DNA of 64,000 nt from Pirellulaceae bacterium (GTDB lineage Bacteria; Planctomycetota; Planctomycetia; Pirellulales; Pirellulaceae): positions 172,388 through 236,387 of the forward strand of contig JAQWSU010000032.1 in assembly GCA_029243025.1 (NCBI GenBank), written 5' to 3'. Below, one piece after another: positions 1-24,214 of the stretch. Under the pieces are notes generated by a model, which was not told the DNA's origin, did no database searches, and saw nothing but the letters and a program-made list of their open reading frames with translations. The translations under genes were made by a program, and so were the position numbers. Position 1 is the stretch's first letter; each line of letters opens with the position of its first letter.

Positions 1-3000
1 AACCAAAGTCGCTGCTGGCCAAACGAAAGGGGGATCCGTGCCAGCTCGCTGCGGTCAATCGGCTGAATTCTCGACGCTGCCTGAGCCGGAATCGAATCGA
101 CCTGACTCGCCAATTGGGCAATCGTGGGATGGTCGAACACCTCACTCAAACGAAATTCTCTTTCATAGGTGGCCATCATTCGAGCATTGAGACGGATCGC
201 CAACAAAGAATGGCCTCCAAGCGAGAAAAAATTGTCGTGGATACCGACCTCTTCAACCCCAAGAACTTCACACCAGATCGCCGCTAATTGTTTCTCGGTG
301 GGAGTCGTCGGCGGATCGAGAATATCTTTGAGACTGGAATTCACGTCAGCAGGCAGCGGTAACTTTCCCGCATCGACTTTTCCGCTACCAGTCAGCGGAA
401 TCGCATCCACCCGAACGTAGGCCCCGGGCAACATATATTCGGGCAGCCTCATTCCTAAGTGTTCAACCAGCACATTAGAATCCAGAGGACCCTGGCCGGA
501 TGCAACATAATACGCAACTAAACGTTGCTCACCATCGCCACACAACAAAACAGTGCTTTGTAGAATATCGGCATGCTCGTTGAGTGCCGTTTCAATTTGC
601 CGGGGCGCGATACGATACCCACGCACTTTTATCTCGGCATCAATGCGCCGCATAAACAGCATCACGCCATCTGACCGTTCAGCAACCAAATCCCCCGTCG
701 TGTAAAACCGCCTTTCATTGAGGGGTTTCGATTCCAAAAGCAGATCGAGCGCATCATTGGGGTCGATAAATCGCTGTCGAGTCAACTCAAGATCATGCAA
801 ATAGCCCCTCGCAAGCCCAGCCCCTCCAATCAATAATTCACCTGCAACACCACGAGGCACCGGCTGCTGCCAAACATCGACGATCACCGCCATCGCGTCA
901 CCGAGAGGCAAACCGATTGGAATACCAAGCGAGTCCGATACTTCGTCCAACGGCCCTAACTCGAAGACAGTCGCGACAACAGTGGTTTCCGTTGGTCCGT
1001 AACTATTGATCAACGTCGGAAGCTGGCAGGACGATTGGCGATATGAAAGTAGATGCTTCCAATGTTTCCCACTGTCTCCAGGAGCCTGCTCGCCCCCAAT
1101 GACGACCAACCGCAGACAGTTCGGCAGTGGTAATTTCAGCGAATTCATCTCTGTGATGACGCCGTACCAATAGGACGTGGGCAAATCCAAGACGCTAATC
1201 GCCTGCTCCGCAATCGTGTCAATAAACTTTTCTGCCGACGCCAACATCAGATCGTTACGCATCACCAGAGTGCCACCACTACAGAGACACGGAAAGATTT
1301 CTTCGAGGGATGCATCAAAGCAAATCGAGGCAAACTGCAGTACCCGATCTGCCGGACCGAACCCGTAACAACCAATCGCGGCAAGGGTAAATTGGACGAT
1401 GGAATGATGTTCGATCATTACGCCATTTGGCACGCCCGATGTGCCCGACGTATGAATCACGTAGGCCAAGCGATCGGCTGATGCGACGTCCTCTAAATCC
1501 AAGCGAGATTCAAACCGGATCAAATCGCCCTGTAAATCGAGGCAAATTCGGTTTGCCGAAGCAACGTTCCCGACATCTTTGTCGTGGCCGCGTTGGATAA
1601 CGGCTTGTAAATCTGCCTTTTGGATAATCTGTTCAAGATAAGAATCAGGATAGTGCGGATCCAGCGGAACATAAGCCGCACCAACCTTCAAAACGGCGAG
1701 TATCGAGACGATCTGATCGAACCCACGGTGAAGAAAAATACCGACCAAAGATTCGGTGCCCACACCGTGCAACTGAAGAAATCTAGCAAGTTGATTCGCA
1801 CGGCCGTTTAACTCGGCGTAGCTGAGCTTTTCACCATCGTACTCCAGCGCTACCGATTCCGGCGATCGCCTCACCTGCCCCTCAAATAATTGGTGTAACA
1901 ACAAGTTGGACCGTTGCCCCACGGCCCTGGCCGAGTCAGGTGGGATCGGGGCAACTAACGAACCTGAAGTCACCGGTATGTCGCGAAGTCGCCGTTCCGG
2001 CTCGCCCAAAGCCGACCGCGCAAAAATCGATAAAGCAGCCACAATTTGGGCTGCCACCGACGAAGAAACGTGCGATTCGTCGTAGAGGAGCCGAATTTCG
2101 TTTCCACTTGGTGGCACCACGAAAGTAATTTGCTCCGTTTCCCATTCCGTAATTTTGTCGACCTGATCCCATACTACGCGGATCGGCAACCGATCTTCGA
2201 CCGGCGTTCCCATCAAGTTAACCAGTTCAGGAAATCGGGAGAGGATATCGCGAGCAAAAGTACAATTGCGATCGAGCAGCCGCAATTCTTTCTTGATCCG
2301 AGTGACAAATTCACCGAATGAATGCTCACCCCGCGCCTCAACTCTGAACGGCACGGTGGTAGAAAACAAACCTTCCACTCCGTTCAACTGATCGTTCAAC
2401 TCAGAACGGACAAAGCCCAGGTCAAAGCATTCATCTTGAGAAAATCTCGCGAGATAAGCTGCCACTACGGCGGTCCAAACTGCGGCCGTCGAACAACCCG
2501 TCTCTCGGCGGAACCCTTCGAGATCTGATCCGCAATTAACCAACAAACACTTCACGGCTGGCTTGTCCGGACGAACCCTGGGAACCTCATTGATGAGTTC
2601 CAGAGCAAATGGATTGAGCGTGCTTAAACGAGCACCCCAAAAAGCTTCGCGATGAGCACACTGTTTCTCAACAGCTCGTATTTGATCGCAGCTCACGAAA
2701 TCCTGCTGAATCGGTGTCGCCCCGTGTTTCCGTTCAACTTCGTCGAACCAGGATTCGATTTCCAGAGACTGCCCATCAATCGTACCTATCTTGCGAAAGC
2801 CAACATCATTGGTCGCCGTTGAGACGACAATACAAGCCTCCGAACAATCGACAATCGTCCCCGGCGGATGAATTGATTTTGCCGGCAGCTTTTCCACATT
2901 TTCGATCAGGTACCAATGGCCATTGACAGCAATCTTGGGCTTACCGATAGGATTTTCCACATGCCCAAAATCCAGTGCTCGAACAAATCGGCAAACCTCA

Positions 3001-6000
3001 TCGGCAGTATGATGCCAAGGTATCAGGCACCCCGGCTGCATTTTATCTGTTGCCCGGTAATAAGTTCGCTTATCAAATTCTTGTGGTTGGGGATGAACAT
3101 CACCTTTGGTTAGTCCCTCCACCAATCGGGGAAAGCTTTGCAGGGTTGCCTCGAAACACTTCGCATTGATCGTCAAGGCCGTTTCCAGATCGTCGATAGC
3201 AAAGGATTCTTGCAGCAGTGTATCGCCGCCATCAATTTCCTCTGTCATCAGATGCCACGTGATCCCATGCTTCGCTTCACCATGGCAAATAGCCCAACTT
3301 GGCGCATAGAGCCCTGCATACTTGGGCAAAATTGCATCATGCAAATTAACTGCACCGAGGCGAGGCTGCCGCAGAACGTCCGGCGGTATAATCTGTGTGT
3401 TGTACAAACTGAAAAGGTAATCGAAGGATTTATTCGACAACACGGTCGCCCAGTCCGAATCATCGGGAATGAACTCCAATTGATGAGCGTTAGCCCAGGC
3501 CTCACACGCGGCTCCAGAGGAGACAATCCCATCGATCCGGTGCCCCTGTTTCAAGAGATAATCGGCACAGGGCTGGACAAAAGAATCTCTGCCAATCAAG
3601 ACGCAATTGATGGCATCCGTCGACAGAGCAATTTCACCAACAGGTTGTTCCGGATCAGTCGCGACGCTTTCCAAGATCGTTACGAACTGCTCACTAATCC
3701 GATCGATAGTCGCAACTTCAAATAGATCCGTGCTGTAGGCAAGAGTTCCATGAATCCCATCTGACCGGGACGTTAAACTCATCGTCAAATCGAATTGAAC
3801 CATTTGTCTGGGGAAATGCATCAGCTGGGATTCCAGCCCAGCTAACATCAACCCTTGATCGCCAAATTCCGTGAACTGAAACATCACTTGAAACAACGGA
3901 TTTCGATCAAGCTGTCGTTCTGGCGCAAGCTTCTCAACAAGCCGCTCGAAAGCTAAATCCTGATGATCATAAGCGTCTAAAGATGTTTCCCGTACACGGT
4001 CCAACACTTGTCGAAAAGAGAGCTCCCTGGACAACATTGTCCGTAGCACAATTGTGTTGACGAATAATCCGATCAGGTTTTCCGTTTCAAGCGCATGACG
4101 TCCGGCAATCGGCGTCCCTACTGTAATGTCCTGCTGTCCACTTAAACGCGAAAGCAATGTCTGAAAGGCGCCGAGCAGTGTCATCTGCATTGTCACACTC
4201 TCCCTGCGCGAAAGCAGCATCAGTCGTTCAACAAGCTCGTCTCCCAACACAAATTCTCGCCGATTGCCACGATAACTGAAACGTGCAGGTCGTGGATGAT
4301 CCGTAGGGAGTTCCAACTCAGAAAGTCCATCCAGCTTTTGCCGCCAGTAGGCAATCAGTTCTTCGTTGAAACTCTGTTCATTGAGTTCATCAAGTTCATC
4401 GAGTTCATCGAGTCGGCGTTTGGTATATGCCGCATACTGCACGGGCAGTTCTGCCAACGGTGAATCTTGCCCTCGCAAAAAAACGGCATACAGTTGCGAC
4501 AACTCTTTCGTCAAAACCTTCATCGACCAACCATCGCTGGCAATGTGATGGATCGACAACAACAAGATGTGCTCCTCTTCATCCAAACGAAGCAGCGACG
4601 CTCGTAACATTAAGTCACGTTTTAGATCGAATGGAAGATTCGATTGGTCCTTCATCTGTTCGCTGATACTGATGATCTGTTCTTCCGTTGTCAGGTCACT
4701 TAGATCGACAACAGATAAATCAAAAGGAACATGAGAGTTGACCATCTGAACGACATCGCCATTCTGCTTGGAAAAAGTCGTGCGAATTGCTTCATGCCGG
4801 CGCACAATTTCATCGAATGCTTCACACAAAGCAGGAGTATCCAACCGACCCAACAACCGCCATGCTTGGACCATGTTGTAGGCAAATCCCGCGCCCATTT
4901 GGTCAAGAAACCACATTCTTCTCTGCGCGAACGACAAAGGGACTTGATCAGCGTCCGAAGTTCGCAGAATCCCATCGGATTCATCAGAACGACTTTCATC
5001 CACCGTTTTGGAAACTAGCTTCATATTGCCCGAGAAAAGCAAGCTGGTAATCTGGCGTCCTACAGCCTCCGAAAATCCCCCTAGGGTCGGCGCGTCAAAC
5101 AAAAGATTACTTGGCAGGGTAATGCCAAGTTGATCGTTAAGACGATTGATGACCTCCGTCGCGACAAGCGAATGCCCTCCCAGCTGAAAAAAGTTGTCGT
5201 GAGAATTCACCGGCCGCTCACTGATCACATCCGCCCAGACGTTTGAAATTAACGACCGCAGTTCACCATCGATTGTTTCACTGGCTTGCGGTTGCAGCGA
5301 ACTCCCTTCTAAATCTTCCGCCAACAAGTCCGCCAATCCAGATCGCTTTACTTTTCCGGTGCTCCCGACAGGAATTTCATTAACAAATACAATTTGTTGC
5401 GGAACCTTAAATTGAGCGATCCGAGCATTTGCAAACTCGCGAACATCGCTCACCATGGCCACATTTCTCGAATTCTGATCGGGCCGAGAATCAGAGTCAG
5501 CCTCCGTGTTCAACACGATCACAGCAGCAATGTCTTCCCCCAACACACGATGATTAATCGGAAAACAAATGGCTTGATCGACGTAACGATGCGAAGTCAA
5601 CACACTCTCTACCTCGCGGGGCGAAATTTTTTCACCTCCACGATTAATGATTTCCTTTTTCCGCCCAGCAACAAAGAGATAGCCTTCATCATCAAAATAC
5701 CCGATGTCGCCAGTTCGAAGCCAACTGTTTTCGGACACCGATTCTGCTGCACGATTTTGGCCAACATATCCAGGCGTTACATTCGCACCTCGGATCGCGA
5801 TTTCTCCCACATTTTCTCTAGCGAGAATTCCACCGACATCGTCGAAGATGACAACCTCGGGTCCAGCAGGAAACCCGACCGACCCCAGCTTACGCTTTCC
5901 GGACGTCAACGGATTACTTGAGATCTGCGGACCCGCCTCGGTCATCCCATACGCCTCAATGAAGGGAACGCCAAAAATATCGGTCATTTCCTCAATTAAG

Positions 6001-6842
6001 TCGTTTGTCATTGGCGCTGACGCCGAACGAATAAATCGGAGTGACGACCCCCTGATTGTGTGTTCCTTTTTACGAGCCTCATCTCGAATCAGTCGGTGAA
6101 TTGTCGGCGACGCGGTGTACCACGTTGGCTTGACTTGCTCCAACATCCTAAAAAAGTTTGCAGCTGAGAATTCTTTTTCACAGACAACGCTACCGCCAGA
6201 GGCCAATGACGCGAAGACGGTACTGAGGCCATGTATATGAAAGAGTGGCATGACGTTCAAACATCGATCATCAGGCCCCAACTCAAGAACTTTTCCAATG
6301 TCTTGCGCACTCGCAAAAAGATTGGCGTAAGTCAGATTCACTAGCTTCGGCGTCGCTGACGTCCCTGAGGTGTGCAACAGCAACGCCGTATCACCGGGTT
6401 CACGGGGTGCAAGCTCGCTCGGGCCAGATCTACTCTCCGTTCGCAAACTGAACTTTCCGCCCGTCGTATCATCCGGACTCAGTTCGACGATCCGCAAACC
6501 CAAATTCTTAGCAGCATCTCGAGCCGGCGTTTCATGCCCCTCGCACACAATCAAAACGGTGGCCTGTAAGTCGGACAAATAAAAATCAAACTCGGGCCGA
6601 CGACAGCTCGGATTGAGCGGCGCACACGCCGCGACGCTTGAAAAACAAATTGTGGCAACGGCTAACTCAGGACCGTCGGGTATGGCAAATGCGATTCGAT
6701 CGCGACCGTCAATTCCGCATCGCGCACACCAGTCTTGAGCCGCAGACAATTGCAGATTCAAATCATCCCACGTCAAAGCTGCCCGGTCGCTAGTGAGAAT
6801 AACCGGGCGATCCACATCGCCTCGAATATTCCGGTCAAACAT
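1..6842 (-). CDS. Non-ribosomal peptide synthetase with internal formyltransferase domain (3' end beyond window)
   Basis: At least 2280 residues in one frame, running off the left edge. Domains in order: an adenylation domain of the CoA-ligase type (about 1-510; 'LLLHTSGTSATPK', 'EAYGMTEAGP', 'STGKVKR'; it has 'MPLFHIHG' where amino-acid A domains have 'FDAS'); carrier T1 with Ser558 ('DNFFQLGGHSL'); condensation domain (about 620-1060, 'HHIASDG' at 765-771); a formyltransferase domain (about 1075-1390, 'VNLHDAILPKYAG'; N1166, H1168 and D1204 match the Asn/His/Asp of methionyl-tRNA formyltransferase); a short condensation-like stretch (about 1395-1600) without HHxxxDG; a second A domain (about 1640-2160; 'VIHTSGTSG', 'NSYGPTETT'); carrier T2 with Ser2212; and the start of another C domain. 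The A2 pocket reads roughly D-A-E-D-V-G-S-V-V, which I do not assign to an amino acid. The ATG at 6842 is chosen because homology begins just after it; GTG 6863 is an alternative. Confidence 0.93.
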   Translation of the reverse strand, partial: MFDRNIRGDVDRPVILTSDRAALTWDDLNLQLSAAQDWCARCGIDGRDRIAFAIPDGPELAVATICFSSVAACAPLNPSCRRPEFDFYLSDLQATVLIVCEGHETPARDAAKNLGLRIVELSPDDTTGGKFSLRTESRSGPSELAPREPGDTALLLHTSGTSATPKLVNLTYANLFASAQDIGKVLELGPDDRCLNVMPLFHIHGLSTVFASLASGGSVVCEKEFSAANFFRMLEQVKPTWYTASPTIHRLIRDEARKKEHTIRGSSLRFIRSASAPMTNDLIEEMTDIFGVPFIEAYGMTEAGPQISSNPLTSGKRKLGSVGFPAGPEVVIFDDVGGILARENVGEIAIRGANVTPGYVGQNRAAESVSENSWLRTGDIGYFDDEGYLFVAGRKKEIINRGGEKISPREVESVLTSHRYVDQAICFPINHRVLGEDIAAVIVLNTEADSDSRPDQNSRNVAMVSDVREFANARIAQFKVPQQIVFVNEIPVGSTGKVKRSGLADLLAEDLEGSSLQPQASETIDGELRSLISNVWADVISERPVNSHDNFFQLGGHSLVATEVINRLNDQLGITLPSNLLFDAPTLGGFSEAVGRQITSLLFSGNMKLVSKTVDESRSDESDGILRTSDADQVPLSFAQRRMWFLDQMGAGFAYNMVQAWRLLGRLDTPALCEAFDEIVRRHEAIRTTFSKQNGDVVQMVNSHVPFDLSVVDLSDLTTEEQIISISEQMKDQSNLPFDLKRDLMLRASLLRLDEEEHILLLSIHHIASDGWSMKVLTKELSQLYAVFLRGQDSPLAELPVQYAAYTKRRLDELDELDELNEQSFNEELIAYWRQKLDGLSELELPTDHPRPARFSYRGNRREFVLGDELVERLMLLSRRESVTMQMTLLGAFQTLLSRLSGQQDITVGTPIAGRHALETENLIGLFVNTIVLRTMLSRELSFRQVLDRVRETSLDAYDHQDLAFERLVEKLAPERQLDRNPLFQVMFQFTEFGDQGLMLAGLESQLMHFPRQMVQFDLTMSLTSRSDGIHGTLAYSTDLFEVATIDRISEQFVTILESVATDPEQPVGEIALSTDAINCVLIGRDSFVQPCADYLLKQGHRIDGIVSSGAACEAWANAHQLEFIPDDSDWATVLSNKSFDYLFSLYNTQIIPPDVLRQPRLGAVNLHDAILPKYAGLYAPSWAICHGEAKHGITWHLMTEEIDGGDTLLQESFAIDDLETALTINAKCFEATLQSFPRLVEGLTKGDVHPQPQEFDKRTYYRATDKMQPGCLIPWHHTADEVCRFVRALDFGHVENPIGKPKIAVNGHWYLIENVEKLPAKSIHPPGTIVDCSEACIVVSTATNDVGFRKIGTIDGQSLEIESWFDEVERKHGATPIQQDFVSCDQIRAVEKQCAHREAFWGARLSTLNPFALELINEVPRVRPDKPAVKCLLVNCGSDLEGFRRETGCSTAAVWTAVVAAYLARFSQDECFDLGFVRSELNDQLNGVEGLFSTTVPFRVEARGEHSFGEFVTRIKKELRLLDRNCTFARDILSRFPELVNLMGTPVEDRLPIRVVWDQVDKITEWETEQITFVVPPSGNEIRLLYDESHVSSSVAAQIVAALSIFARSALGEPERRLRDIPVTSGSLVAPIPPDSARAVGQRSNLLLHQLFEGQVRRSPESVALEYDGEKLSYAELNGRANQLARFLQLHGVGTESLVGIFLHRGFDQIVSILAVLKVGAAYVPLDPHYPDSYLEQIIQKADLQAVIQRGHDKDVGNVASANRICLDLQGDLIRFESRLDLEDVASADRLAYVIHTSGTSGVPNGVMIEHHSIVQFTLAAIGCYGFGPADRVLQFASICFDASLEEIFPCLCSGGTLVMRNDLMLASAEKFIDTIAEQAISVLDLPTSYWYGVITEMNSLKLPLPNCLRLVVIGGEQAPGDSGKHWKHLLSYRQSSCQLPTLINSYGPTETTVVATVFELGPLDEVSDSLGIPIGLPLGDAMAVIVDVWQQPVPRGVAGELLIGGAGLARGYLHDLELTRQRFIDPNDALDLLLESKPLNERRFYTTGDLVAERSDGVMLFMRRIDAEIKVRGYRIAPRQIETALNEHADILQSTVLLCGDGEQRLVAYYVASGQGPLDSNVLVEHLGMRLPEYMLPGAYVRVDAIPLTGSGKVDAGKLPLPADVNSSLKDILDPPTTPTEKQLAAIWCEVLGVEEVGIHDNFFSLGGHSLLAIRLNARMMATYEREFRLSEVFDHPTIAQLASQVDSIPAQAASRIQPIDRSELARIPLSFGQQRLW
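4379..4411 (-). repeat. In-frame 9-nt tandem repeat coding Asp-Glu-Leu units inside the NRPS C domain
   Basis: The + strand reads near-identical copies of 'gagttcatc' (variants 'aagttcatc', 'gagttcatt'). On the coding strand this gives 'RRLDELDELDELNEQ' in the linker before 'AYWRQKLDGL' of the condensation domain. The repeat keeps the frame, so unit gain or loss would lengthen or shorten an acidic helix without breaking the enzyme. Confidence 0.75.
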
Positions 6843-7304
6843 TTTATACCAATCAGTGATCACGTCGCACCCAAACCGCCTCAAAGGGTTAAAAAACAAC
6901 TCAAGTTACACCATTAACAAAACTTATTTCATCCAGTACACCTTCCTACTTCCACAGATCCACAATTTCGAAAACAGGGCGACAGGCTCGCGTCACGAGA
7001 GTCACGAGAGTCACAAACCACAAAAAAGCTATTTCCAGGTCGCAAAACCGATCCTGCTTCGTCCTTAGAACAGGTTAATACAGGCAGGTAATATTGTCGA
7101 AGAAAGCGTTCAAATCGGCCTTCGCCCCGCTGGTTATCCGGCTCGAACCATGAACGGGGGGGGGAGGAGGAGGGGGGGGGCACTCAACGGATATAATGCG
7201 GCGGCTCCACCGAGCTTTTCCTGGAGACGATACAGCATCCGCGCACTGCCTCACCAGGAAGCAGCATTTCACATGGGACTCACTTTCACAGGCAACCAAA
7301 ATCA
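6843..7304. other. Intergenic region between divergent NRPS and sulfatase
   Basis: No supported gene. It separates the minus-strand NRPS from the plus-strand sulfatase, so promoters for both are expected here, but I could not pick a convincing -35/-10 pair. It holds 2.5 copies of 'gtcacgaga' (6992-7013) and the G-rich tract listed separately. Short ORFs across the G tract are proline-rich artefacts of homopolymer reading. Confidence 0.6.
7156..7180 (+). repeat. G-rich tract (G9-A-GG-A-GG-A-G9), possible G-quadruplex
   Basis: Twenty-two of 25 bases are G, in two runs of nine Gs separated by AGGAGGA. It lies about 125 bases upstream of the sulfatase start. The pattern can fold as a G-quadruplex on the plus strand, and runs of nine identical bases are prone to slippage. 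It could also be a low-accuracy part of the assembly. Confidence 0.7.
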
Positions 7305-8744
7305 TTGAAGACAAAACACCCTACCCATTTTGTTTTCCGCTACCGAATCGGGATCCGATCATGTTTCGCTCCGATCGTTATCCTGGCCTTGCTCGCATCG
7401 GAAGTGACTTCAAACGAGCATCCTCAGCCCAATGTGATCATATTCTTCACAGATGATCATGGATCGCTTGACGCCAACTGCTACGGTGCGAGTGACCTGC
7501 TAACACCAAATATCGATCGGCTAGCGGAAACAGGGATTCGCTTCACTCAGGCATATTCGCATACAGTCTGTTGCCCAGCCCGTGCAATGCTATTGACTGG
7601 CCGGTATCCGCAACGCAGCGGTATCACAACTTGGACCCAAGGTGACATGAACGGCGCAGCTGGTCGGAACATGCCACTTGATGAATACACACTTGCCGAG
7701 GCATTGCAGGACTCAGGCTACACCACAGGTCTATTTGGCAAATGGCATCTGGGAGCCCACAAGGACTACGGACCGAAGAAACAGGGATTCGACCATTTTT
7801 TTGGACTGCGGGGTGGCTTCATTGACAACTACAACCACCATTTCCTACACGGGAACGGTTTTCCAGATCTCTATGACGGCACAACTCGGGTTAACGCAAA
7901 GGGAGACTATTTTCCGGAGTTGATGACCGAGCGATCCTTGAAGTTCATCGATCACAACAAGCATCGTCCATTCTTCCTCTACGCTGCTTTTAACATCCCC
8001 CATTACCCGGAACAATCGCTGACTCGATTCCGAGAACCTTACAAAGATCTAACGGACCCAGCCCGACGTTCCTATAACGCGGTGCTGACGACCACGGATC
8101 ACTACATCGGGAAGATCATCCAAAAGATTGAAGAACATGGACTCCGAGAGTCAACGATCATGATCCTGATGGGTGATAATGGCCACTCGGAGGAAACCAC
8201 GAACCGAATACGCACCAACAACCACACTAGCGGATTAGCGAAAGAATATTTCTATGGAGCAAGCGGAGGCGGTTACACGGGAAAATGGCGTGGCTGCAAA
8301 GGTACATTTCTGGAAGGCGGCATTCGAGTGCCCGCCATTATCAGCTACCCCGCAGGTCTACCGCAGCACGAAACACGTGACCAGATCATCACCGCAATGG
8401 ACTGGTATCCCACAATCCTGGACTTGTGCAACATTACTCGCAAACCCAACGCACCGATCGTCGATGGGCACAGCGTGCTACCTTTTGTGCGATCGGCTTC
8501 TCTGCCATCGGCCTACCGCGGCGTGCTCCACTTCGGCTGGGCCAATCAATGGGCAATTCGCGACGGAGATTGGAAACTAATCGGAAAAACAAAATCAGCG
8601 AAAGATGAAGCTCAAGCTCTCTTCAATTTGGCTGACGTTGAACCAGAAGCCACGAACCATCTGCAACACCAGCCTCGGATCGTAAAACGCTTGCTTAGCC
8701 TACATCAACAATGGGCCAGGAACGTCAAGCGACAATCGCTTTAA
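7305..8744 (+). CDS. Formylglycine-dependent sulfatase
   Basis: Arylsulfatase-type hydrolase of the alkaline phosphatase fold, cleaving sulfate esters; in planctomycetes such enzymes usually act on sulfated algal polysaccharides. The family start is clear ('PNVIIFFTDDHG' with metal-binding Asp pair), and the maturation motif C-x-P-x-R is present as 'CCPAR' with Cys89 as the residue to be oxidised to formylglycine. 'LFGKWHLG', 'MGDNGHSEE' and 'KGTFLEGGIRVPAI' are further conserved blocks. A hydrophobic stretch ('APIVILALLAS') near residues 24-34 suggests export, after an unusually long basic leader. There is no ATG: the given start is TTG, and the frame stays open upstream to 7197, so the true start is uncertain. 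The 3' end overlaps the convergent gene on the other strand by 45 bases. Confidence 0.93.
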   Translation: MKTKHPTHFVFRYRIGIRSCFAPIVILALLASEVTSNEHPQPNVIIFFTDDHGSLDANCYGASDLLTPNIDRLAETGIRFTQAYSHTVCCPARAMLLTGRYPQRSGITTWTQGDMNGAAGRNMPLDEYTLAEALQDSGYTTGLFGKWHLGAHKDYGPKKQGFDHFFGLRGGFIDNYNHHFLHGNGFPDLYDGTTRVNAKGDYFPELMTERSLKFIDHNKHRPFFLYAAFNIPHYPEQSLTRFREPYKDLTDPARRSYNAVLTTTDHYIGKIIQKIEEHGLRESTIMILMGDNGHSEETTNRIRTNNHTSGLAKEYFYGASGGGYTGKWRGCKGTFLEGGIRVPAIISYPAGLPQHETRDQIITAMDWYPTILDLCNITRKPNAPIVDGHSVLPFVRSASLPSAYRGVLHFGWANQWAIRDGDWKLIGKTKSAKDEAQALFNLADVEPEATNHLQHQPRIVKRLLSLHQQWARNVKRQSL

Positions 8745-10694
8745 GAGCGGATCTTCCAAAGCAAGTAAGGCATCGGAGAGCTCGTCTTCGCTCAAGCTGG
8801 GCTGATAGTCGTCAAACACCCGATCAATCGGTTGGCCCAGCACAAACACCTTCTCTTGCCTTGATCCGAATAAGGATCGGTGCACTGCCTCGTCACCAGA
8901 TTCCAAGGTCGCATCCTCTCGCTTCGTGTCACCCACAACTGCCGCCGCAACTTCCCCGAATCTAGCCTTCACACCAACCTCATTGGCCGTGAAGGTGCCG
9001 GCTTGAAACACGAAGATGAGATCGTTCGAGTTAAAATCTCGATCGCCGTTCCAATCACCATCGTTATAAGTAGAATTCAAGGGCACGCCATCCTCATATT
9101 CACCGGCGGCAAAGACGGAGATTAGATCGCCTGAGTTGAAAAACGCATCTGCATTAACATCACCCCAGGTCAGGCCAGCCAAGTCGCTCCAGGCTTGACG
9201 GTCGGTAGCAGATACGTGGCTATCCGCATTAAGGTCGTACTTCCACACCGGCTCCTGCTGTGAATGAACGGCTGCACTTAATCGATCCAGGTCAGCTTCA
9301 TCAAGAACCCCATTAAAGTCAAAGTCTCCAATTTCGGGTTCCACATGATCCGCCGCCAGAAGGTAATCGACCATATTCTCGGTCAGCAATTTGAAGTCGT
9401 CACCATCCGGACCGGTAAAACCATAGTTGCCCCAGTCGGTGGCACCAACGTTGAGGACGCGCCCCGAGTTAGGCGTGTGTTGGAATTCAATCCAACCGCC
9501 TAGGGTCCGACCCGGTGATGGTTTCCAGGACATCTGGGCGAACTCGAACCCGTACAGATCGAAAAAATAATAGTCACTCGAGTACTCGGGGTCGACAATC
9601 GGGAATCCGGTCGCATCGTCACTATCCAGCCCCAAATTCGGAAAGCCATCGCATTCACTATTATAAGGAATTCGCAGGATTTCCCCTCGCTCAAGCTCAA
9701 GCCCGCGGAAAAAGGGCGCTGTGGTGTCGACGACTTTGTAGCCACGAAATCCAACCGAAGGATCACATTTCCCGCACGTGTTTCCTCGCCCACCCCAGCA
9801 GTAGTTCATACCGATGCTGGAAAGAACGGCGTCCCAGTCCGTGCGACCAGCCACCTGAATGGTATCTTCGGTCGGGTACTCAACCGGGTGGTACAGTACG
9901 TTGCCCCCCAAAATCAAGACCGATCCTCCTTCCCGGACAAATCGATCTAAGTTCTCGTGCGCTTTTACAGACCAATATTCATTGTGACCGGCAACGATCA
10001 ATAGCTTAGAACCCGACAACTCCGAATAATCATCCATCTCTCGATCACTAATCACTCGATGATCGTAGTCCTGAAGCGCCATCCACTTATTGAGGTGTGG
10101 TGTACGAAAATGGGTGTTTCGAGGACGTTCAAAACTAACGGTCGGCGTCTTGTCAGTCGCATATTGCGTGTAGGCGCTTTCACCTCCTGACTCGTTGTAG
10201 AGGTTCGGAGTATTTGTGCTTGTTAGATAGACAATATCGGACTGCTTGCTGGGCCGTTTGACGATAAAGGGGATTTGTTTTCCGCCGCGAAAATCTCGCA
10301 GTTTCTTGGGGAAACCAAAATAGTAAATACCACTTTCCATATCCTGAGGAATGGTATAGCTCGCCTCCGATACATAACCAAAACCGTGTTTCCACGGGTC
10401 GATCTCCGCCGGCTGCTGTGGATTCAACCGTTCGACTACGATCGTCTCTCGAAGTTCTAAGGCCGCGTCGTAAATTTTGAGGTCCACGTTTGTCTGCTCG
10501 GTCGCACCGTTTAAATACAATTCGACCGTCTCCCCCGGAAGATAGGTCCACCTATCGGTGTACCCATCGACAATTTCGGCCGCGGCAAGTAGCTGCCGAG
10601 CTTCCAACTGTTCAACACGGCCGATCTTGCGACTAGGATGACGATATGATTTGCGGCTGCGCCTCAAACTCAGCGAAGAGTTACAAAGATTCAT
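8700..10694 (-). CDS. Secreted N,N-dimethylformamidase-like protein with LEPR motif and dockerin-like tail
   Basis: 664 residues. The N-terminus is basic and carries 'RVEQLEARQLLAA', the LEPR-like motif found at the start of many exported planctomycete proteins. The central part (about 40-440) resembles the large-subunit family of N,N-dimethylformamidase, seen in 'RNTHFRTPHLNKW', 'AGHNEYWS' and 'GGSVLILGGNVLY'. The last 200 residues hold Asp/Asn-rich EF-hand-type repeats ('DFDFNGVLDEADLDRL', 'DLNADSHVSATDR', 'DVNADAFFNSGDL', 'DWNGDRDFNSNDL'), as in type I dockerins. Start: ATG 10694 has 'AGGA' about 9 bases upstream; a TTG seven codons earlier is possible. The substrate is unknown; amide hydrolysis is only a family-level guess. 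The 3' end overlaps the convergent sulfatase by 45 bases. Confidence 0.82.
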   Translation of the reverse strand: MNLCNSSLSLRRSRKSYRHPSRKIGRVEQLEARQLLAAAEIVDGYTDRWTYLPGETVELYLNGATEQTNVDLKIYDAALELRETIVVERLNPQQPAEIDPWKHGFGYVSEASYTIPQDMESGIYYFGFPKKLRDFRGGKQIPFIVKRPSKQSDIVYLTSTNTPNLYNESGGESAYTQYATDKTPTVSFERPRNTHFRTPHLNKWMALQDYDHRVISDREMDDYSELSGSKLLIVAGHNEYWSVKAHENLDRFVREGGSVLILGGNVLYHPVEYPTEDTIQVAGRTDWDAVLSSIGMNYCWGGRGNTCGKCDPSVGFRGYKVVDTTAPFFRGLELERGEILRIPYNSECDGFPNLGLDSDDATGFPIVDPEYSSDYYFFDLYGFEFAQMSWKPSPGRTLGGWIEFQHTPNSGRVLNVGATDWGNYGFTGPDGDDFKLLTENMVDYLLAADHVEPEIGDFDFNGVLDEADLDRLSAAVHSQQEPVWKYDLNADSHVSATDRQAWSDLAGLTWGDVNADAFFNSGDLISVFAAGEYEDGVPLNSTYNDGDWNGDRDFNSNDLIFVFQAGTFTANEVGVKARFGEVAAAVVGDTKREDATLESGDEAVHRSLFGSRQEKVFVLGQPIDRVFDDYQPSLSEDELSDALLALEDPLLKRLSLDVPGPLLM

Positions 10695-11244
10695 TGAAGA
10701 ACGTCCTGAGTGCAACGTTAAGATGGATTTACCTGACTAATTGCGAAAACCGAATTCGCTTTCAGCAATTATTCGGCGACTTATCATAACCACCCCATCC
10801 ATCATCGCACACGCTTTTCTTGCAAAGATTTCAACCGCGAATTACCAGCCGGTTAAAAATATGGCCAGATCGATAGCCTTCTAAAACGTAGCCTGGCACA
10901 AATCAGCTTGGGATAAGACATTTCTTGTGTGCTGTGATTTACATCCGTTCTCAAAAAGGAAAAACGATTAACGCTGACGGTGGGTTTTCAGGCGACAGAT
11001 TTGCCGCGCGTTCCTCAGGTACATGCGCCCACCTGCACACCTATAAGCTGAAGAGTTGCCTGCCGAACGGTCTACCAATCACTGATGGCATCCGGCCAAA
11101 GCAATGAGAGTTCGCTCTGCAGGAGCGTTGATGCAGAATGGAGGGCTTCGGAAAGTCAAGCCGTTTAGTAATTTCCGACGCAGGGGATACAAAGTACTGA
11201 TGGCCGCTTCACGCTCTGATCCAGACCATGCCCTCTGCGGAAAT
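10695..11244. other. Intergenic, nothing recognised
   Basis: About 550 bases between two minus-strand genes. I read both strands and found no conserved protein fragment, RNA gene or clear repeat. Confidence 0.5.
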
Positions 11245-13495: not shown

Positions 13496-14500
13496 CTAAT
13501 CAACAGGTACTGGATGACAGTGAGGAAGTTCTTTTTCAGCCGCGAATGGAACCAGAGAGCGTCCGTGATCTCGGAGCAGATATCGGTTACAAGGAACTTT
13601 ATTAAGAAAGTCAGTCGGCGGTGCCATGCCAAACTCGTACAATGGAACACAACGAATAATGTAGACAGACCGGAGGTTATCATCGCACCAAGGTTCAATA
13701 TCGTGGTATCGTTTATTGTTAAACAGCACCACTTCACCGGCCTTAAAATCGACTGGCTGAAGCTCCTCTTTTTTTGGCGTGGGGAGAAGAGCTCTGCCGT
13801 AATAAATCGCAACAAAACGCTGAGCAATCATCTTCCGTCTTCTCGATTTCATAATTGCTTCTCGGGTGACCAAGCCCCGCTCATCAACCGCTCCAACCGA
13901 TTGACAAAATTCTGAAAACTCGACAATCCGACGATTCCAATCTCGATATCGAATTGTTTTGTCAGCGTTTTGTTCGACGCATAATCTTCCACCCGTTTCT
14001 TCCGTTAAATCGACCAGAGGAATGTAGAAGCTAAGATCGTCGCCGCTCTGATAAAAAATATCCCATCCAAATCCATCTTCATGAAAGCCGAAGGTTGTCT
14101 TATCCCGACTATTCTCCAAATAAATATCATGTCCCACCAGCAAAGGCACTTCACCCAAAAAGTTGCTCAAGCCATTCGCCATGCATTCATTGATCACGAG
14201 AGGCAGAAGATCCGTGGAACCAAAAATTGTCTTGTCGTATCGATCACCCTGAATGGTCCTGTGGAGTGCTTTTGCTCCAAAGGTCTTCTTAAAACGCAGA
14301 TACATGGCCCGCCACCATGACGTCGCATAATGCTCCAACGATTGCGTGTAGAAAAACGACCAATTTGACGATTGCGGTGAGACGCCGGAAAAATGCTCTC
14401 GGATCTTGGCCATCAGCGGTTCCGGTAACCGTAGCCCGGTACGCACATATCCCTGCTGATTAAGTTCTCGCAAAGCGGTATTAGTGAGAATTTTTTCCAT
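13496..14500 (-). CDS. Fe(II)/2-oxoglutarate-dependent dioxygenase (phytanoyl-CoA dioxygenase-like)
   Basis: 334 residues from ATG 14500 ('MEKILTNTALRELNQQGYV'). The double-stranded beta-helix iron site is visible: an H-x-D motif in 'FGFHEDGFGWD' near residue 140, the distal His in 'NNKRYHDIEPW' near residue 266, and an Arg shortly after ('NLRSVYIIRC') suited to bind 2-oxoglutarate. 'IPLVDLTEETGGRLCV' is the usual PhyH-type strand after the first motif. Enzymes of this fold hydroxylate or otherwise oxidise carrier-bound or free intermediates in peptide and polyketide pathways. Its place between PKS and NRPS suggests tailoring of that product (inference). An upstream ATG at 14596 would add 32 residues with no family match. 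Confidence 0.85.
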   Translation of the reverse strand: MEKILTNTALRELNQQGYVRTGLRLPEPLMAKIREHFSGVSPQSSNWSFFYTQSLEHYATSWWRAMYLRFKKTFGAKALHRTIQGDRYDKTIFGSTDLLPLVINECMANGLSNFLGEVPLLVGHDIYLENSRDKTTFGFHEDGFGWDIFYQSGDDLSFYIPLVDLTEETGGRLCVEQNADKTIRYRDWNRRIVEFSEFCQSVGAVDERGLVTREAIMKSRRRKMIAQRFVAIYYGRALLPTPKKEELQPVDFKAGEVVLFNNKRYHDIEPWCDDNLRSVYIIRCVPLYEFGMAPPTDFLNKVPCNRYLLRDHGRSLVPFAAEKELPHCHPVPVD

Positions 14501-14667
14501 ACATCGGACTCTCAACGACCTAACAAGGGACAACTTCCGATTATTGATATTCCCCACAATATGTAGCTCAATAATAATGGGGGTGCAGTGCACCAATCCC
14601 GATGAAGCGCATTTCCTACAAAACCAGGAAGGCGCATATCCCTACTACCAATAATTCTGCAACAAAC

Positions 14668-14671
14668 AGGA
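14668..14671 (+). promoter_or_regulatory. Ribosome-binding site deciding a GTG start
   Basis: 'AGGA' lies 7 bases before the GTG at 14679. There is no ATG near the start of the thioesterase-like homology, so this site supports GTG as the initiation codon. Confidence 0.5.
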
Positions 14672-14678
14672 AATCGAA

Positions 14679-15425
14679 GTGAAACTAAGTGTTACACTCG
14701 TTGAAAACTGCAGCGGCCCCCCTCTATTCATCGTTCCTTCCGCTGCTACCACCTCGTTATCGTTGACACTACTCGCGAGGTCCATTTCTCCGCCTCGGCC
14801 GATCCACTCGTTTGTGTTTCCCGATTTGGAAGACAAACGGATCGAACCACAAACCGTTGAGGAGATGGGCACCCAATTCGTTTCCGAAATGAAGTCGATA
14901 CAGCCGGAAGGTCCATATTTCTTGGCGGGACACTGTTTTGGGGCAACTCCCGCCATGGAGGTCGTCACCCAATTGGAAGCCGCAGGTGAAACGGTCGCGT
15001 TGTTGATCTTAATCGAGTCTTTTTCAGTGGGCATAGCTGAAACCGCCGTCGCCGAATCAACCCAACCTTTGAAACTGTATTCGTCGGAATATGGCGAAGA
15101 CCTTGGAAAGGCTGCGACCGAAATCGTTACGCAAATTGGATCGAAATTATCCCTATTACCGATCGATATTCGCGATCACTTTACCCGCGTCACCACCCAT
15201 CACCTTCACCTGGCGTTCAGCTATCGAGCGAAACCGATTACAGCACCAATTTTTCAGATCAGGACGACACAGCACCCCGAAACGGTTTTCAAAGGCTGGG
15301 ACCACTTAACCACTGATGGTTACATCGAACGACTCATCGGCGGCACCACCGATTCGATACTGCAAGCACCAGACGTTACCACGTTAGCAAATGAAATCAG
15401 TGACGCTTTGATACGTTTCAGCTAA
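14679..15425 (+). CDS. Thioesterase-like alpha/beta-hydrolase with altered catalytic residues
   Basis: 248 residues, the size of a stand-alone thioesterase of NRPS/PKS systems. The overall match is clear: 'PPLFIVPSAA', 'QPEGPYFLAGHCFGATPAMEV', 'ETVALLILIES', 'IFQIRTTQHPE'. The nucleophile elbow G-x-S-x-G reads 'GHCFG', making residue 86 Cys instead of Ser. The acid position after strand 6 ('LILIESFS') is Glu113 instead of Asp. The motif normally 'GxHxxML' reads 'GGTTDSIL', with Thr224 where the catalytic His should be. Cys nucleophiles occur in a few NRPS thioesterases; loss of the His is not expected in a working hydrolase. It may bind, edit by another mechanism, or be inactive. Start is GTG. 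The last 8 bases overlap the convergent PKS gene. Confidence 0.85.
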   Translation: MKLSVTLVENCSGPPLFIVPSAATTSLSLTLLARSISPPRPIHSFVFPDLEDKRIEPQTVEEMGTQFVSEMKSIQPEGPYFLAGHCFGATPAMEVVTQLEAAGETVALLILIESFSVGIAETAVAESTQPLKLYSSEYGEDLGKAATEIVTQIGSKLSLLPIDIRDHFTRVTTHHLHLAFSYRAKPITAPIFQIRTTQHPETVFKGWDHLTTDGYIERLIGGTTDSILQAPDVTTLANEISDALIRFS

Positions 15426-18400
15426 CCTTCACTAACTCCTTATCTATCTGATCGCAGATCTTGGCTATCGTTGTGTTTCGAAATAGTGCGGTGAGCGGTA
15501 AATTAATCCCCAACGATTCCTCAACAAAAGTTTGTATGATGATGGCGCTAATCGAGTCACCGCCCAGCTCAATGAAGTCATCATCGATACCGACGGGTTC
15601 TACCCCAAGCGTTTTTTCCCAAACCTGCTTGAGTGTTATTTCATTTTCGCGAGTCGCTTCCCGGTATGGCGTATCAACGGGCCGGACAGCGATCTGATCG
15701 GCATGATGCTTTTCGACCAAACCATTGACATTCAACGCTTCCGCGCTGGCAACCACATTCGCTGGAGTCTCATCGGAACGCACCAAACGTTCAAACACTT
15801 CGAGGCCATCCACCAAACTGATTCCCGCACCAAATCTCGCTCGGAAATGATTCAACTCATCGTCAACCGCATTAGCAGGATGCTCCGTGGTGATGACAAT
15901 TTTGCCGATATGCTTCGCACGAGCCATATGTTCGAATCCTTTACCGATATCCGCCAGACTGAAGGTCGTCACCGGACAGGGACGATAGCGTCCCGTGGCA
16001 AAATCTAGCATCATGCAACCAAACATATCGTGAAATTTTTCCGGTCGAAACTTCATCATCTGGCCCAAATCAACACCGAAATAGGAGAGGTTATTTTGAA
16101 ATGGGAATAAATCGATCTCAGTGTGTTCAAACATGTCTCGCTTTCCCAATTCCAGAAAGCGACCGAACGGCTTGAGAACAGAAAAATTGGCCGCTATAAA
16201 ATCCCCCGCCAGAGAATTGAGCACAACGTCTACCCCCTCTCCTTCGGTGATACCGATGATTTCTTCGACGAAATCATGCGTTCGAGAATCCATAACGTGT
16301 TCGATGCCAAGTCCCCGAAGATAGGCACGCTTTTTATCACTGCCTGCCGTCGCAAAAATCTCCGCACCGATTCGTTTGGCAATCTGAATGGCAGCAAGTC
16401 CCACACCGCCCGTCGCAGCATGGATTAATACGCGTTCTCCCGCCTCCAATTTCGCGAGCTGATTTAGAGCATACTCACAAGTCAGGAAGGTAATCGGAAT
16501 ACTCGCGCCTTCGACGAAAGTGAGACTCTCGGGTAAAAAGCTTACCGCATTGGAATCCACCAAAGCGCTTGTCGCGAAGCAACTGTTCGAGATTGCGACG
16601 ACCCGATCACCTACTTTAAAATCCTGCACTTTGGAGCCAACCTCTTCCACGATACCGCTACACTCCATTCCAAGTCTCAATCTCTCAACTTCCGCGTTGG
16701 GCATCTGGCCCAGGGCACACAGCACGTCTCGAAAGTTCAAGCCGGTCGCTGCGATGCTCAGGCGAACCTCCGTCGGTTTGATGGGAAGATTATACAAATC
16801 TCGTGGCTCAAACGAATTCAGTGCTCCGATTTTCCCAACCACCATACTGTGGTCTTTTTTCTCCTCATCAATTGCGCCAAAACCACCCCACCCATCATCA
16901 GTCGCTCGCAACGAATAGTTGTCCAGCTCGACCAGCACGTTACCAGACGAATCCGCGATAACAAGATTACATCCGTTTGCCGATTCTCCTTCCACACGCG
17001 TGGCGTAGGTAAAGGTTTCAGCAGGGAGGCTTCCGTAAATTCGACAAGCATCGCAAGAAAATGGAATCAATGCGCCAACAAGGTGATCCATTGCATTGTG
17101 AATAGACCTATCCAGAAGGGCCGGATGCAGAACGTACTCGTTTAATTCCTCGAGATACTTGTCAGGGAGTCGGACACGAGTGGCAATCGAATCATCATCG
17201 CTCTGGGCCACCCAATCACAGTGCCATCGAGGTCCAGCCCAATCAAATTTCCGGGAAGGCTCAAGCGACTGTTTCTTCAACGCTTCAAATTTCTCCAAGA
17301 TTTCAGAAGCGACAGAAGGGGATGATTCAATGGTTTTGATTTCTGCTTTAAAGTTAATCGTCCATCCGTTCTTTTCACCGTCATGCTTTGATCGAAGCTC
17401 AACCCGATAGGATTCTCTAAATGGAACAAAAATCAGTTCGTAGTCTGTCTCTGCACCGACCACAAACGGAGATAACAACACCACACCGTTCAGTCCTATG
17501 CCTGGCGCCGCTGGATCAATTTCGGAATACGCAGCACGAACCATTTCATAGATGCTCGTTGCAGAAACAATTCCTTGTGATCGATCTTGATTGACCACGT
17601 GCTCGGTACCAACCCAGTGACTGTCGACCGCCATCTTGCCGCTGAACAAAACACTGCCATTCGGATACGCACCTTTTTTTTCCAAGAGCGAATGCGTTAC
17701 ATCGCGAATCGAATCGAGCGGAGGCTGGCTATCCGGTTTTTGATCAAACAACGACGTCAATGCTAATTCTGTCCTCTGATAACTCCACGCCATCCCCGCA
17801 TCGCGCCATGCTCCCCAGCCAATCGCACAGGCAAGCCCACGACCCGCCTGCGACCTGCGGCGAGCTAAGCGATCCAATACTGCGTTGGCTGCGGAATAAT
17901 CGACTTGGCCTTTATTGGGTTGTGACGACGCTTGCGAAGAGAAATGGACGAACATATCGAGATATTGGTCTCCATAGATCTCCTCCAACAGGTAGGCACT
18001 GCCGACCTTGGCCATAAATACCTTATCGGCACTTTCCACTGTCTTGTGGAGTACAGGTCCGTCATCGAGGATGCCAGCCGCATGAACGATTCCATGAACA
18101 GCGCCGAACCTTGCCCTCGCTTCCGCATCAACTCGACGCAGATCCTCTCGATTGCACACATCCGCTTGAACGATGTGAACCTCGGCACCGCGATCCACTA
18201 GGCGAGAGATCCGTTGGATTGCCCGACCGATTTTGTCGTCTCGAGTCGCGTATTCCGGCCATTCTTCTCGGGGCGGCGGGCTCCAGCGGCTAGTCAAAAC
18301 AAGCCGGGCCTTCGAGGAGTCGAAGAGTTTTTCCGCGATGCAAATTCCGAGCCCTCCGACGCCCCCGGTAATAACGACGGTCCCGCCAGAACGCAGGCGC

Positions 18401-21831: not shown

Positions 21832-21970
21832 TAGCTCTCGCCACCAACAGTGAAATAATTGCCTGTCCGGTTAAAATCCAAAACAACATTTGTTTGGATT
21901 TCAAACAAGACAACGACAGTCTGCGATTTACTCACCACATTGCATCAACACAAATCTCAACGGAACAATT

Positions 21971-23614: not shown

Positions 23615-24214
23615 GTGCCCAACAAATCGTGAAAAGGTAACGAGTTGATAATTGCAAAACGTACAAGTTCCAGTTTGGATACACACGCACGATGCGAGCC
23701 AGAAAACGACCTGGGTATCAAAAAGCTCATACTCTCGCAGAACTTCAGACACCTCACGGGGCCATCACAGACAGCCAGCTGAAAGCTGATTTCACCATCC
23801 CTCGACGTGGATCACCTGCTTCTTTCAATCCGGACCATGACTTAGCTCTCTCAGCTTTTTTTGTCTTCCACCGAGAGGCCAGCCGTAGCCGGTAATCACC
23901 AAAGCATATGTCGCATTACCGCCACTCGCACCCCCAAAACCACCTATCTTTCCTGTTTAGCCCAGCAAGTCAGGCCCACTTCACACTCAGTGGAAGGCAG
24001 GTTGGGATGCAGCATGCCCCCTTACCGCGCGGTCCGGAAAGGACCCCGACGATCGATAAATCTTTTCATATTAACATGTTAGGATAATTCGCATCTCCAC
24101 CGTAAAGAGCGCATCCCACCATTCAAGCGAAGGAATCTCTCAATCAGGAGAGATTACCGCACGCCAGAAGGGGCGTCGGCCTTAGAAGTCTGCACCGGAC
24201 TGGCGTTTGGTCCG
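23615..24214. other. Intergenic upstream of the radical SAM gene
   Basis: No gene supported beyond a possible N-terminal extension of the radical SAM gene (to 23752). It should contain the promoter of the radical SAM-PKS unit. A perfect 8-bp hairpin (24134-24155) is listed separately. Confidence 0.5.
24134..24155. terminator. 8-bp perfect hairpin
   Basis: 'aatctctc' and 'gagagatt' pair around the 6-base loop 'aatcag'. It lies 60 bases past the end of the decayed ankyrin ORF on the minus strand. There is no T run, so termination is only a possibility. Confidence 0.35.

What the first reader, a model, noticed from the sequence alone, without database searches (positions are those of the whole stretch)
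2950..3620. Formyltransferase domain built into the middle of an NRPS
Residues about 1075-1390 of the NRPS match methionyl-tRNA formyltransferase, with N1166, H1168 and D1204 spaced as in the enzyme (N and D 38 apart in both). Known formylating NRPSs such as linear gramicidin LgrA carry the domain at the N-terminus for initiation. Here it follows a complete A-T-C module and precedes a truncated C-like region and the next A domain. That suggests formylation of an internal or side-chain amine, or a second start point, rather than ordinary initiation.
Basis: partly seen in the sequence, partly recalled or inferred. Interest (0 to 1): 0.72.

Follow-up and report, generated by a model that had tools for sequence, protein, structure and literature searches.

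The report
Mid-assembly-line formyltransferase for lysine side chains
A bacterial peptide-making enzyme carries a formyltransferase domain in its middle rather than at its start, beside a domain predicted to load lysine, so it likely caps lysine's side chain with a formyl group while the peptide is being built.

Summary
One unbroken 3,620-codon ORF (the window holds its first 2,299 codons) reads acyl-ligase–T–C–FT–half-C–A–T–C–A–T–TE. The FT (window 2745-3614, minus) passes Pfam's cut-offs and keeps the N/H/D triad. A complete C domain (HHIASDG) precedes it, unlike the initiation-module F domains of the review read. The "truncated C-like region" is the C-terminal lobe of a condensation domain. 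FT–half-C–A–T proves to be a widespread module, usually at the protein's N-terminus.

New here: where a C domain directly precedes this FT and no monooxygenase is inserted, the adjacent A domain has E239, as in lysine codes, in 24 of 24 non-redundant cases, against 26 of 114 N-terminal FT modules and 4 of 76 ordinary C–A modules. An FT in an elongation module would need a residue with two amines: one for the chain, one for the formyl group. I therefore favour side-chain (Nε) formylation of lysine over a second start point.

Not shown: activity, lysine loading, any product. Three C–FT proteins with an inserted monooxygenase have glycine-type codes and do not fit, and the tests that allow for relatedness do not reach significance.

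The parts
3..6899 (-). NRPS open reading frame (first 2,299 of 3,620 codons; it continues beyond the window start as L007:3425-14287). Likely start ATG at window 6842, residue 20 of the ORF.
5310..6842 (-). Acyl-CoA-ligase-type adenylation domain (oxalate-CoA-ligase-like), predicted to load a carboxylic acid starter
   Evidence: PDB sequence search
5055..5267 (-). Carrier (T) domain 1, LGGHSL motif
3624..4952 (-). Complete condensation domain C1, active-site motif HHIASDG
2745..3614 (-). Formyltransferase domain FT with the N/H/D triad (N at window 3345-3347, D at 3231-3233)
   Evidence: model confidence about 90-98 over most of this stretch
1965..2702 (-). Half-C: C-terminal lobe of a condensation domain, without the HHxxxDG lobe
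   Evidence: Pfam positions 177-322/456; no HHxxxD; half-C plus A superposes on C-lobe plus A of ordinary modules
405..1898 (-). Adenylation domain A2, specificity code DAEDVGSVV(K), lysine-type
   Evidence: reference Lys codes in PMC3207962
114..317 (-). Carrier (T) domain 2, on which the formylated residue would sit
1..113 (-). Linker and beginning of the next module; most of C2 and all of A3 (code DAFWLGGTF, valine-like), T3 and the thioesterase lie outside the window on the same contig

Best explanation
A formyltransferase domain sits in the middle of this peptide synthetase, right after a complete condensation domain, and it likely formylates the side-chain amine of a lysine that the same module is predicted to load, while the condensation domain would join that lysine's alpha-amine to the upstream acyl chain. 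Inferred steps, in order: the ligase domain would load a carboxylic acid onto T1; A2 would load lysine onto T2; FT would transfer a formyl group from 10-formyl-tetrahydrofolate to the epsilon-amine of lysyl-T2; C1 would condense the acyl starter with its alpha-amine; C2/A3/T3 would add a valine-like residue; TE would release an acyl-(Nε-formyl)Lys-Val-type product. Shown: the domain order, the intact motifs, the lysine-type code, and that such codes accompany C–FT modules without a monooxygenase in other genomes. In the predicted model the half-C lobe lies against A as the second lobe of a normal C domain does, so the FT would stand where the catalytic first lobe is usually found.
For: Single ORF and domain order. 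The N/H/D triad is kept in 27 of 27 C–FT rows checked, the query included, and in 212 of 224 FT rows in all. C1 has HHIASDG; HHxxxD is kept in 27 of 27, the closing G in 23. A2 code DAEDVGSVV matches 6 of 8 positions of the BacB-M1 lysine code DAESIGSV printed in PMC3207962, which also lists DGEDHGTV for a predicted pyoverdine lysine module. The idea was noted before the comparison (from a hand reading that was partly off register). After removing FTs 90% alike, modules with C directly before FT and no monooxygenase have E239 in 24 of 24; N-terminal FT modules in 26 of 114 (Fisher p 2.8e-13, not corrected for relatedness); ordinary C–A modules of the same protein set, not de-duplicated, in 4 of 76. 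The C–FT label needs 4 changes on the first FT tree, all 4 forced by well-supported branches, and 10 on the larger tree, 3 forced. Independent contrasts without monooxygenase rows never go the other way: with a lysine-like rule 4.0 of 4 agree on average, with E239 alone 2.8 of 4; on the larger tree 2.9 and 2.6 of 3. Half-C plus A superposes on C-lobe plus A of McyB (621 residues, 3.1 A) and, with T, on EntF (801 residues, 3.7 A).
Against: P0022-P0024 have C directly before FT but glycine-type codes (DILQ.GMIW), so C–FT does not always mean a two-amine residue; they carry a luciferase-like monooxygenase and are one lineage. 26 of 114 N-terminal FT modules also have E239, so the code alone does not predict position. 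No sign test over independent pairs reaches 0.05: median p 0.125 (lysine-like rule) and 0.25 (E239), with or without monooxygenase rows; p 0.25 for both, and 0.625 for both with monooxygenase rows, where 0.5 pairs on average go the other way. The lysine-like rules were set after seeing codes. Most C–FT A domains fall into a few related groups (24 rows, 5 changes), so the code is partly shared by descent. A2's substrate is read from a code, not measured. The relative placing of the domains in the models is uncertain (pTM 0.66 and 0.70).
Confidence: 0.6

Rival explanations
1. Second start point: FT formylates the alpha-amine of the A2 residue, and C1 with the upstream acyl-ligase is bypassed in some or all rounds, giving a formyl-capped peptide that starts at module 2.
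For: [quoted passage not shown] C–FT proteins with glycine-type codes exist (P0022-P0024).
Against: C1 keeps HHIASDG and matches solved C domains over about 417 residues. It offers no reason why 24 of 24 C–FT modules without a monooxygenase have E239.
Confidence: 0.17
2. Swapped roles: C1 acylates the epsilon-amine of lysine and FT formylates its alpha-amine.
For: It also needs a two-amine residue, so the code association fits equally well.
Against: C domains normally take the alpha-amine of the acceptor aminoacyl-T (general knowledge); C1 matches the ordinary C family over nearly its whole profile, though its acceptor preference was not tested.
Confidence: 0.08
3. Relic: the FT–half-C block came along with the A–T it was fused to, and now serves only as a spacer without catalysis.
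For: The query's FT sits on a long branch (0.89 and 0.93 changes per column).
Against: The triad is intact in 27 of 27 C–FT rows checked, the FT matches Pfam above both cut-offs, and the model is confident over the FT.
Confidence: 0.12

Closest known systems
LgrA (linear gramicidin synthetase A), F-A-T initiation module
   Same: Formyl_trans_N-type domain in cis with A and T; sequence match to LgrA entries over about 127 residues and piecewise structural match of the FT–half-C–A–T model to 5es8 (737 residues aligned, but rmsd 20 A, so not as one rigid body)
   Different: LgrA starts with the F domain (PMC8150014, passages). Here it follows acyl-ligase–T–C, and a half-C lies between FT and A.
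FT–half-C–A–T modules at protein N-termini (cyanobacteria, Photorhabdus, Xenorhabdus, Streptomyces and others); the anabaenopeptilide and kolossin synthetases named in the review may belong here (not tested)
   Same: Same FT, same half-C, same order up to T
   Different: No C domain before FT; codes are mixed, many reading as glycine, threonine, serine, valine or tyrosine by recall, a minority with E239.
Acyl-ligase–T–C–FT–half-C–A–T(-TE) proteins L010 and L035 (cyanobacteria) and P0044
   Same: Identical order up to A2 (L010 is cut there) or T2; lysine-type code DAEDIGTVV
   Different: L035 and P0044 go straight to TE; the query adds a C–A–T module. The query's own sister row in the FT tree is P0004, a cyanobacterial C–FT protein without the ligase.
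Free-standing side-chain formyltransferases of siderophore pathways such as PvdF
   Same: They modify a monomer inside the peptide (PMC8949500, passages)
   Different: Separate proteins acting in trans. No N-hydroxylase was seen in the ten neighbouring ORFs scanned, and the genome's one Lys_Orn_oxgnase match (partial, 25.8 bits, cut-off 21.3) is on another contig.

Membership tests
10-formyl-THF-dependent formyltransferase domain | Formyl_trans_N match above the curated cut-off | tested here: met
   73.8 bits against 26.1
10-formyl-THF-dependent formyltransferase domain | Catalytic N-H-D triad with N and D 38 apart | tested here: met
   N1166, H1168, D1204 in ATG numbering
10-formyl-THF-dependent formyltransferase domain | Formyl transfer from 10-formyl-THF | not testable with these tools
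   needs an enzyme assay
LgrA-type formylating initiation module | F domain lies in the initiation module (at the start in LgrA) | tested here: not met
   FT starts at residue 1096 of 3620, behind acyl-ligase–T–C
LgrA-type formylating initiation module | F joined directly to A | tested here: not met
   a half-C of about 245 residues lies between them
NRPS elongation module | C (HHxxxDG), A and T present in order | tested here: met
   C1 HHIASDG, A2, T2 with LGGHSL
Lysine-activating A domain | Lysine-type specificity code | tested here: met
   DAEDVGSVV against DAESIGSV (BacB-M1-Lys) in PMC3207962, 6 of 8 positions; a prediction, not a measured substrate
Lysine-activating A domain | Activates lysine in vitro | not testable with these tools
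   needs an ATP-exchange assay
trans-acting siderophore formyltransferase | Free-standing protein | tested here: not met
   the FT is internal to a 3,620-codon ORF

The most novel reading that the evidence does not exclude
There is a class of formylating elongation modules, C–FT–half-C–A(Lys)–T, in which a formyltransferase has taken the place of a condensation domain's catalytic lobe. It has arisen more than once, each time around a lysine-type A domain, and it makes peptides with Nε-formyl-lysine in cis during assembly, in cyanobacteria, a planctomycete and other bacteria. This would break the published rule that F domains act only at initiation.
Probability: 0.5. Interest if true: 0.75.

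Novelty: new variant of a known kind. Interest (0 to 1): 0.6.

Why it matters
[quoted passage not shown] another paper names further loading-module cases, PMC5764310, passages). A module that formylates a side chain in the middle of the line would be a new tailoring step in cis. It would turn a free amine into a neutral cap, and the pattern gives genome miners a simple rule to test: C directly before FT predicts lysine and a +28 Da side chain. It also suggests how a foreign catalytic domain can be seated on half of a condensation domain, which is of use for NRPS engineering.

Tried and rejected
Frameshift or misassembly: rejected; one open frame of 3,620 codons on a 236-kb contig.

Hydroxamate route (N-hydroxylation followed by formylation): no supporting gene nearby; one partial Lys_Orn_oxgnase hit on another contig (25.8 bits, cut-off 21.3), in a family that also rings in 12 of 14 control genomes.

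First code reading: the hand reading and the table used a wrong register at positions 278, 299 and 301; it was corrected. The corrected register gives DFWNIGMVHK for P0028, which agrees with the threonine code DFWNIGMV printed in PMC3207962. The codes should be ignored.

Plasmid hits that looked like C–FT (845 records matched, 3 read): in L089 a short FT precedes a complete C, so it is not the same order; in L090 and L091 no C directly before an FT was seen in the frames over 250 codons that the script read; the short annotated formyltransferase of L091 was not among them.

Searching the literature by code letters: ten-letter codes gave no paper; shorter forms gave three papers, one of use; a search for lysine-specific A-domain wording gave none. 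A search for formyl-lysine with nonribosomal led to anabaenopeptin G and ferintoic acid in a table, to rBAN entries in which a CO unit of Norine is counted as formyl (I recall the CO of anabaenopeptins as a ureido bridge), and to an N-formyl-Lys surugamide; the passages shown there do not name a formyltransferase domain. Statements about what is not in print rest only on searches.

Fold searches: for the long model of C1–FT–half-C the rows shown are C-domain and C–A entries, so the FT fold was not tested by structure search alone.
Full report
What is there. The NRPS is a single open frame of 3,620 codons on the minus strand, L007:3425-14287, of which the window holds the first 2,299. Pfam and a domain map give acyl-ligase (residues 20-530), T1, C1 (650-1092), FT (1096-1385), half-C (1400-1645), A2 (1668-2165), T2, C2, A3, T3 and TE. 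The FT passes Pfam's cut-offs for both the N- and C-terminal formyltransferase families, and by sequence its best solved relatives are ArnA, methionyl-tRNA formyltransferases and sugar formyltransferases, with LgrA further down.

The half-C. The region after FT matches PF00668 only from position 177 on, just below the curated cut-off, and lacks HHxxxDG. In the predicted model of FT–half-C–A–T (mean pLDDT 83, pTM 0.70), half-C plus A superposes on the C-terminal lobe plus A of ordinary C–A modules: McyB 621 residues at 3.1 A, Txo2 641 at 3.0 A, and with T on EntF 801 at 3.7 A. LgrA rows align FT and A–T only piecewise (rmsd near 20 A). So half-C is likely a seat that keeps the normal C–A platform while the FT stands in for the catalytic lobe.

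How common it is. In these and in two protein searches (39 hits, of which four showed no FT in my map; and 120 listed of 191), the block FT–half-C–A–T mostly stands at the protein's N-terminus, often with a luciferase-like monooxygenase inside A. A complete C domain directly before FT was found in the query and in a minority: 28 rows without monooxygenase, the query included (24 after removing FTs 90% alike), and 3 with it, of 224 FT rows. L010, L035 and P0044 have the same acyl-ligase–T–C–FT start as the query. Among 392 genomes of the window's phylum, 28 have an FT at E 1e-30, the query's included. Fourteen loci beside the query's, from 13 of those genomes, were read; none shows a C in the FT's frame. 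The weaker hits were not read, and the loci were 3.4-3.8 kb, so only the near upstream was seen. In 199 genomes of its family 4 have one at E 1e-50, the query included; the other three were not read for order. The query's FT groups with cyanobacterial FTs (98/95 support with P0004), so horizontal transfer is likely but untested.

The code. A2 reads DAEDVGSVV at the nine specificity positions and A3 DAFWLGGTF, valine-like by recall. A published table gives DAESIGSV for the bacitracin lysine module and DGEDHGTV for a predicted pyoverdine lysine module (PMC3207962, passages). I wrote down the idea that an internal FT should go with a side-chain-amine residue and then compared contexts. With C directly before FT and no monooxygenase, E239 is present in 9 of 9 of the first set and 19 of 19 of the second (some of these repeat the first), 24 of 24 after de-duplication, against 26 of 114 N-terminal FT modules without monooxygenase; 76 ordinary C–A modules from the same protein set, three FT-less hits among its proteins, have 4. 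A stricter lysine-like rule (E239, D/E/N/S/H at 278, G301, S/T322) was set after seeing these codes; it gives 24 of 24 and 7 of 114. The rule used for one search was E239, D/N at 278 and G301: 9 of 9 and 3 of 55. Rows with FT under 230 residues, without a code, or with gaps at the first three code positions were dropped before the count; monooxygenase rows and two rows with FT behind a T domain were left out of it.

Relatedness. On the first FT tree (116 rows) the C–FT label without monooxygenase needs 4 changes, and well-supported branches force all 4. On the second (158 rows, monooxygenase rows thinned) it needs 10, of which 3 are forced. In independent contrasts without monooxygenase rows the lysine-like rule goes with C–FT in 4.0 of 4 on average and E239 in 2.8 of 4, and in 2.9 and 2.6 of 3 on the larger tree, never the other way; the sign tests give p 0.125 and 0.25 and 0.25 for both, not significance. 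With monooxygenase rows p stays at 0.125 and 0.25 (5 pairs, the lysine-like rule agreeing in 4.0, E239 in 2.9) and is 0.625 for both (4 pairs, on average 0.5 against). The A-domain tree puts the 24 C–FT A domains in a few related groups (5 changes, 4 forced), so part of the pattern is shared descent of A, possibly by FT–half-C entering lysine modules.

Mechanism. An FT acting on the alpha-amine would block the condensation that the intact C1 is there to make. A residue with a second amine removes the conflict. Lysine fits, and codes of this type recur in the C–FT modules without a monooxygenase that I could read. The step is inferred: no assay, product or measured specificity was found. The three glycine-type C–FT–monooxygenase proteins (P0022-P0024) show that another logic is possible, perhaps after oxidation of the glycine.

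Comparison with print. The review PMC8949500 (passages read) says F domains are always in the initiation module and act in cis only on the N-terminal residue, naming anabaenopeptilide, gramicidin and kolossin; other papers read in passages also place F in loading or initiation modules (PMC5764310; PMC3252866; PMC12858407; PMC8150014). In the searches made (13, 22, 23, 33, 34, 36, 38, 67, 68, 85) I saw no description of a C–FT elongation module, in listings and the passages read; only open-licence papers are held.

Noticed in passing
window 8700-10715, minus: A protein with an N,N-dimethylformamidase beta-subunit-like domain (PF20254, 107.6 bits) and a dockerin match lies 1.8 kb from the formylating NRPS; whether a formamidase-like domain beside a formyltransferase is more than coincidence is unknown.
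   Followed up: no
window 13496-23752: A small cluster near the NRPS: an ORF without Pfam match (13496-14596), a free thioesterase, a 2,137-aa polyketide synthase (KS, AT, DH, KR, ER-type and carrier domains) and a B12-binding radical SAM enzyme. It may supply or modify the acyl part.
   Followed up: partly
L020-L087, many loci: FT–half-C–A–T proteins of about 1,550 aa with a luciferase-like monooxygenase inside a glycine-type A domain (DILQ.GMIW) are frequent among the 80 loci fetched, above all in Roseobacter-type bacteria; one literature search gave no product.
   Followed up: partly
P0022, P0023, P0024: The same glycine-type monooxygenase modules but with a complete C domain directly before FT: the exception to the lysine rule.
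   Followed up: partly
L032 and P0117: FT follows a T domain with no C between (C-A-T-FT-half-C-A-T; C-T-FT...), again with E239-type codes DAEPIGSIG and DAEDIGTVV.
   Followed up: no
L089:4494-14497: On Sinorhizobium meliloti plasmid pSmeAK21a a short FT (about 180 aa) precedes a complete C-A-T: another way of fusing FT to an NRPS.
   Followed up: no
P0070-P0138, several: Single-module FT–half-C–A–T–TE proteins of about 1,450 aa with varied codes, several of them cyanobacterial where a name is given, predicted to release single formylated amino acids.
   Followed up: no
FT alignment: 12 of 224 FT rows deviate from the N-H-D triad (NHN, NHG, NHE, DHE, NND) and may be inactive; none of the 27 C–FT rows printed there is among them.
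   Followed up: no
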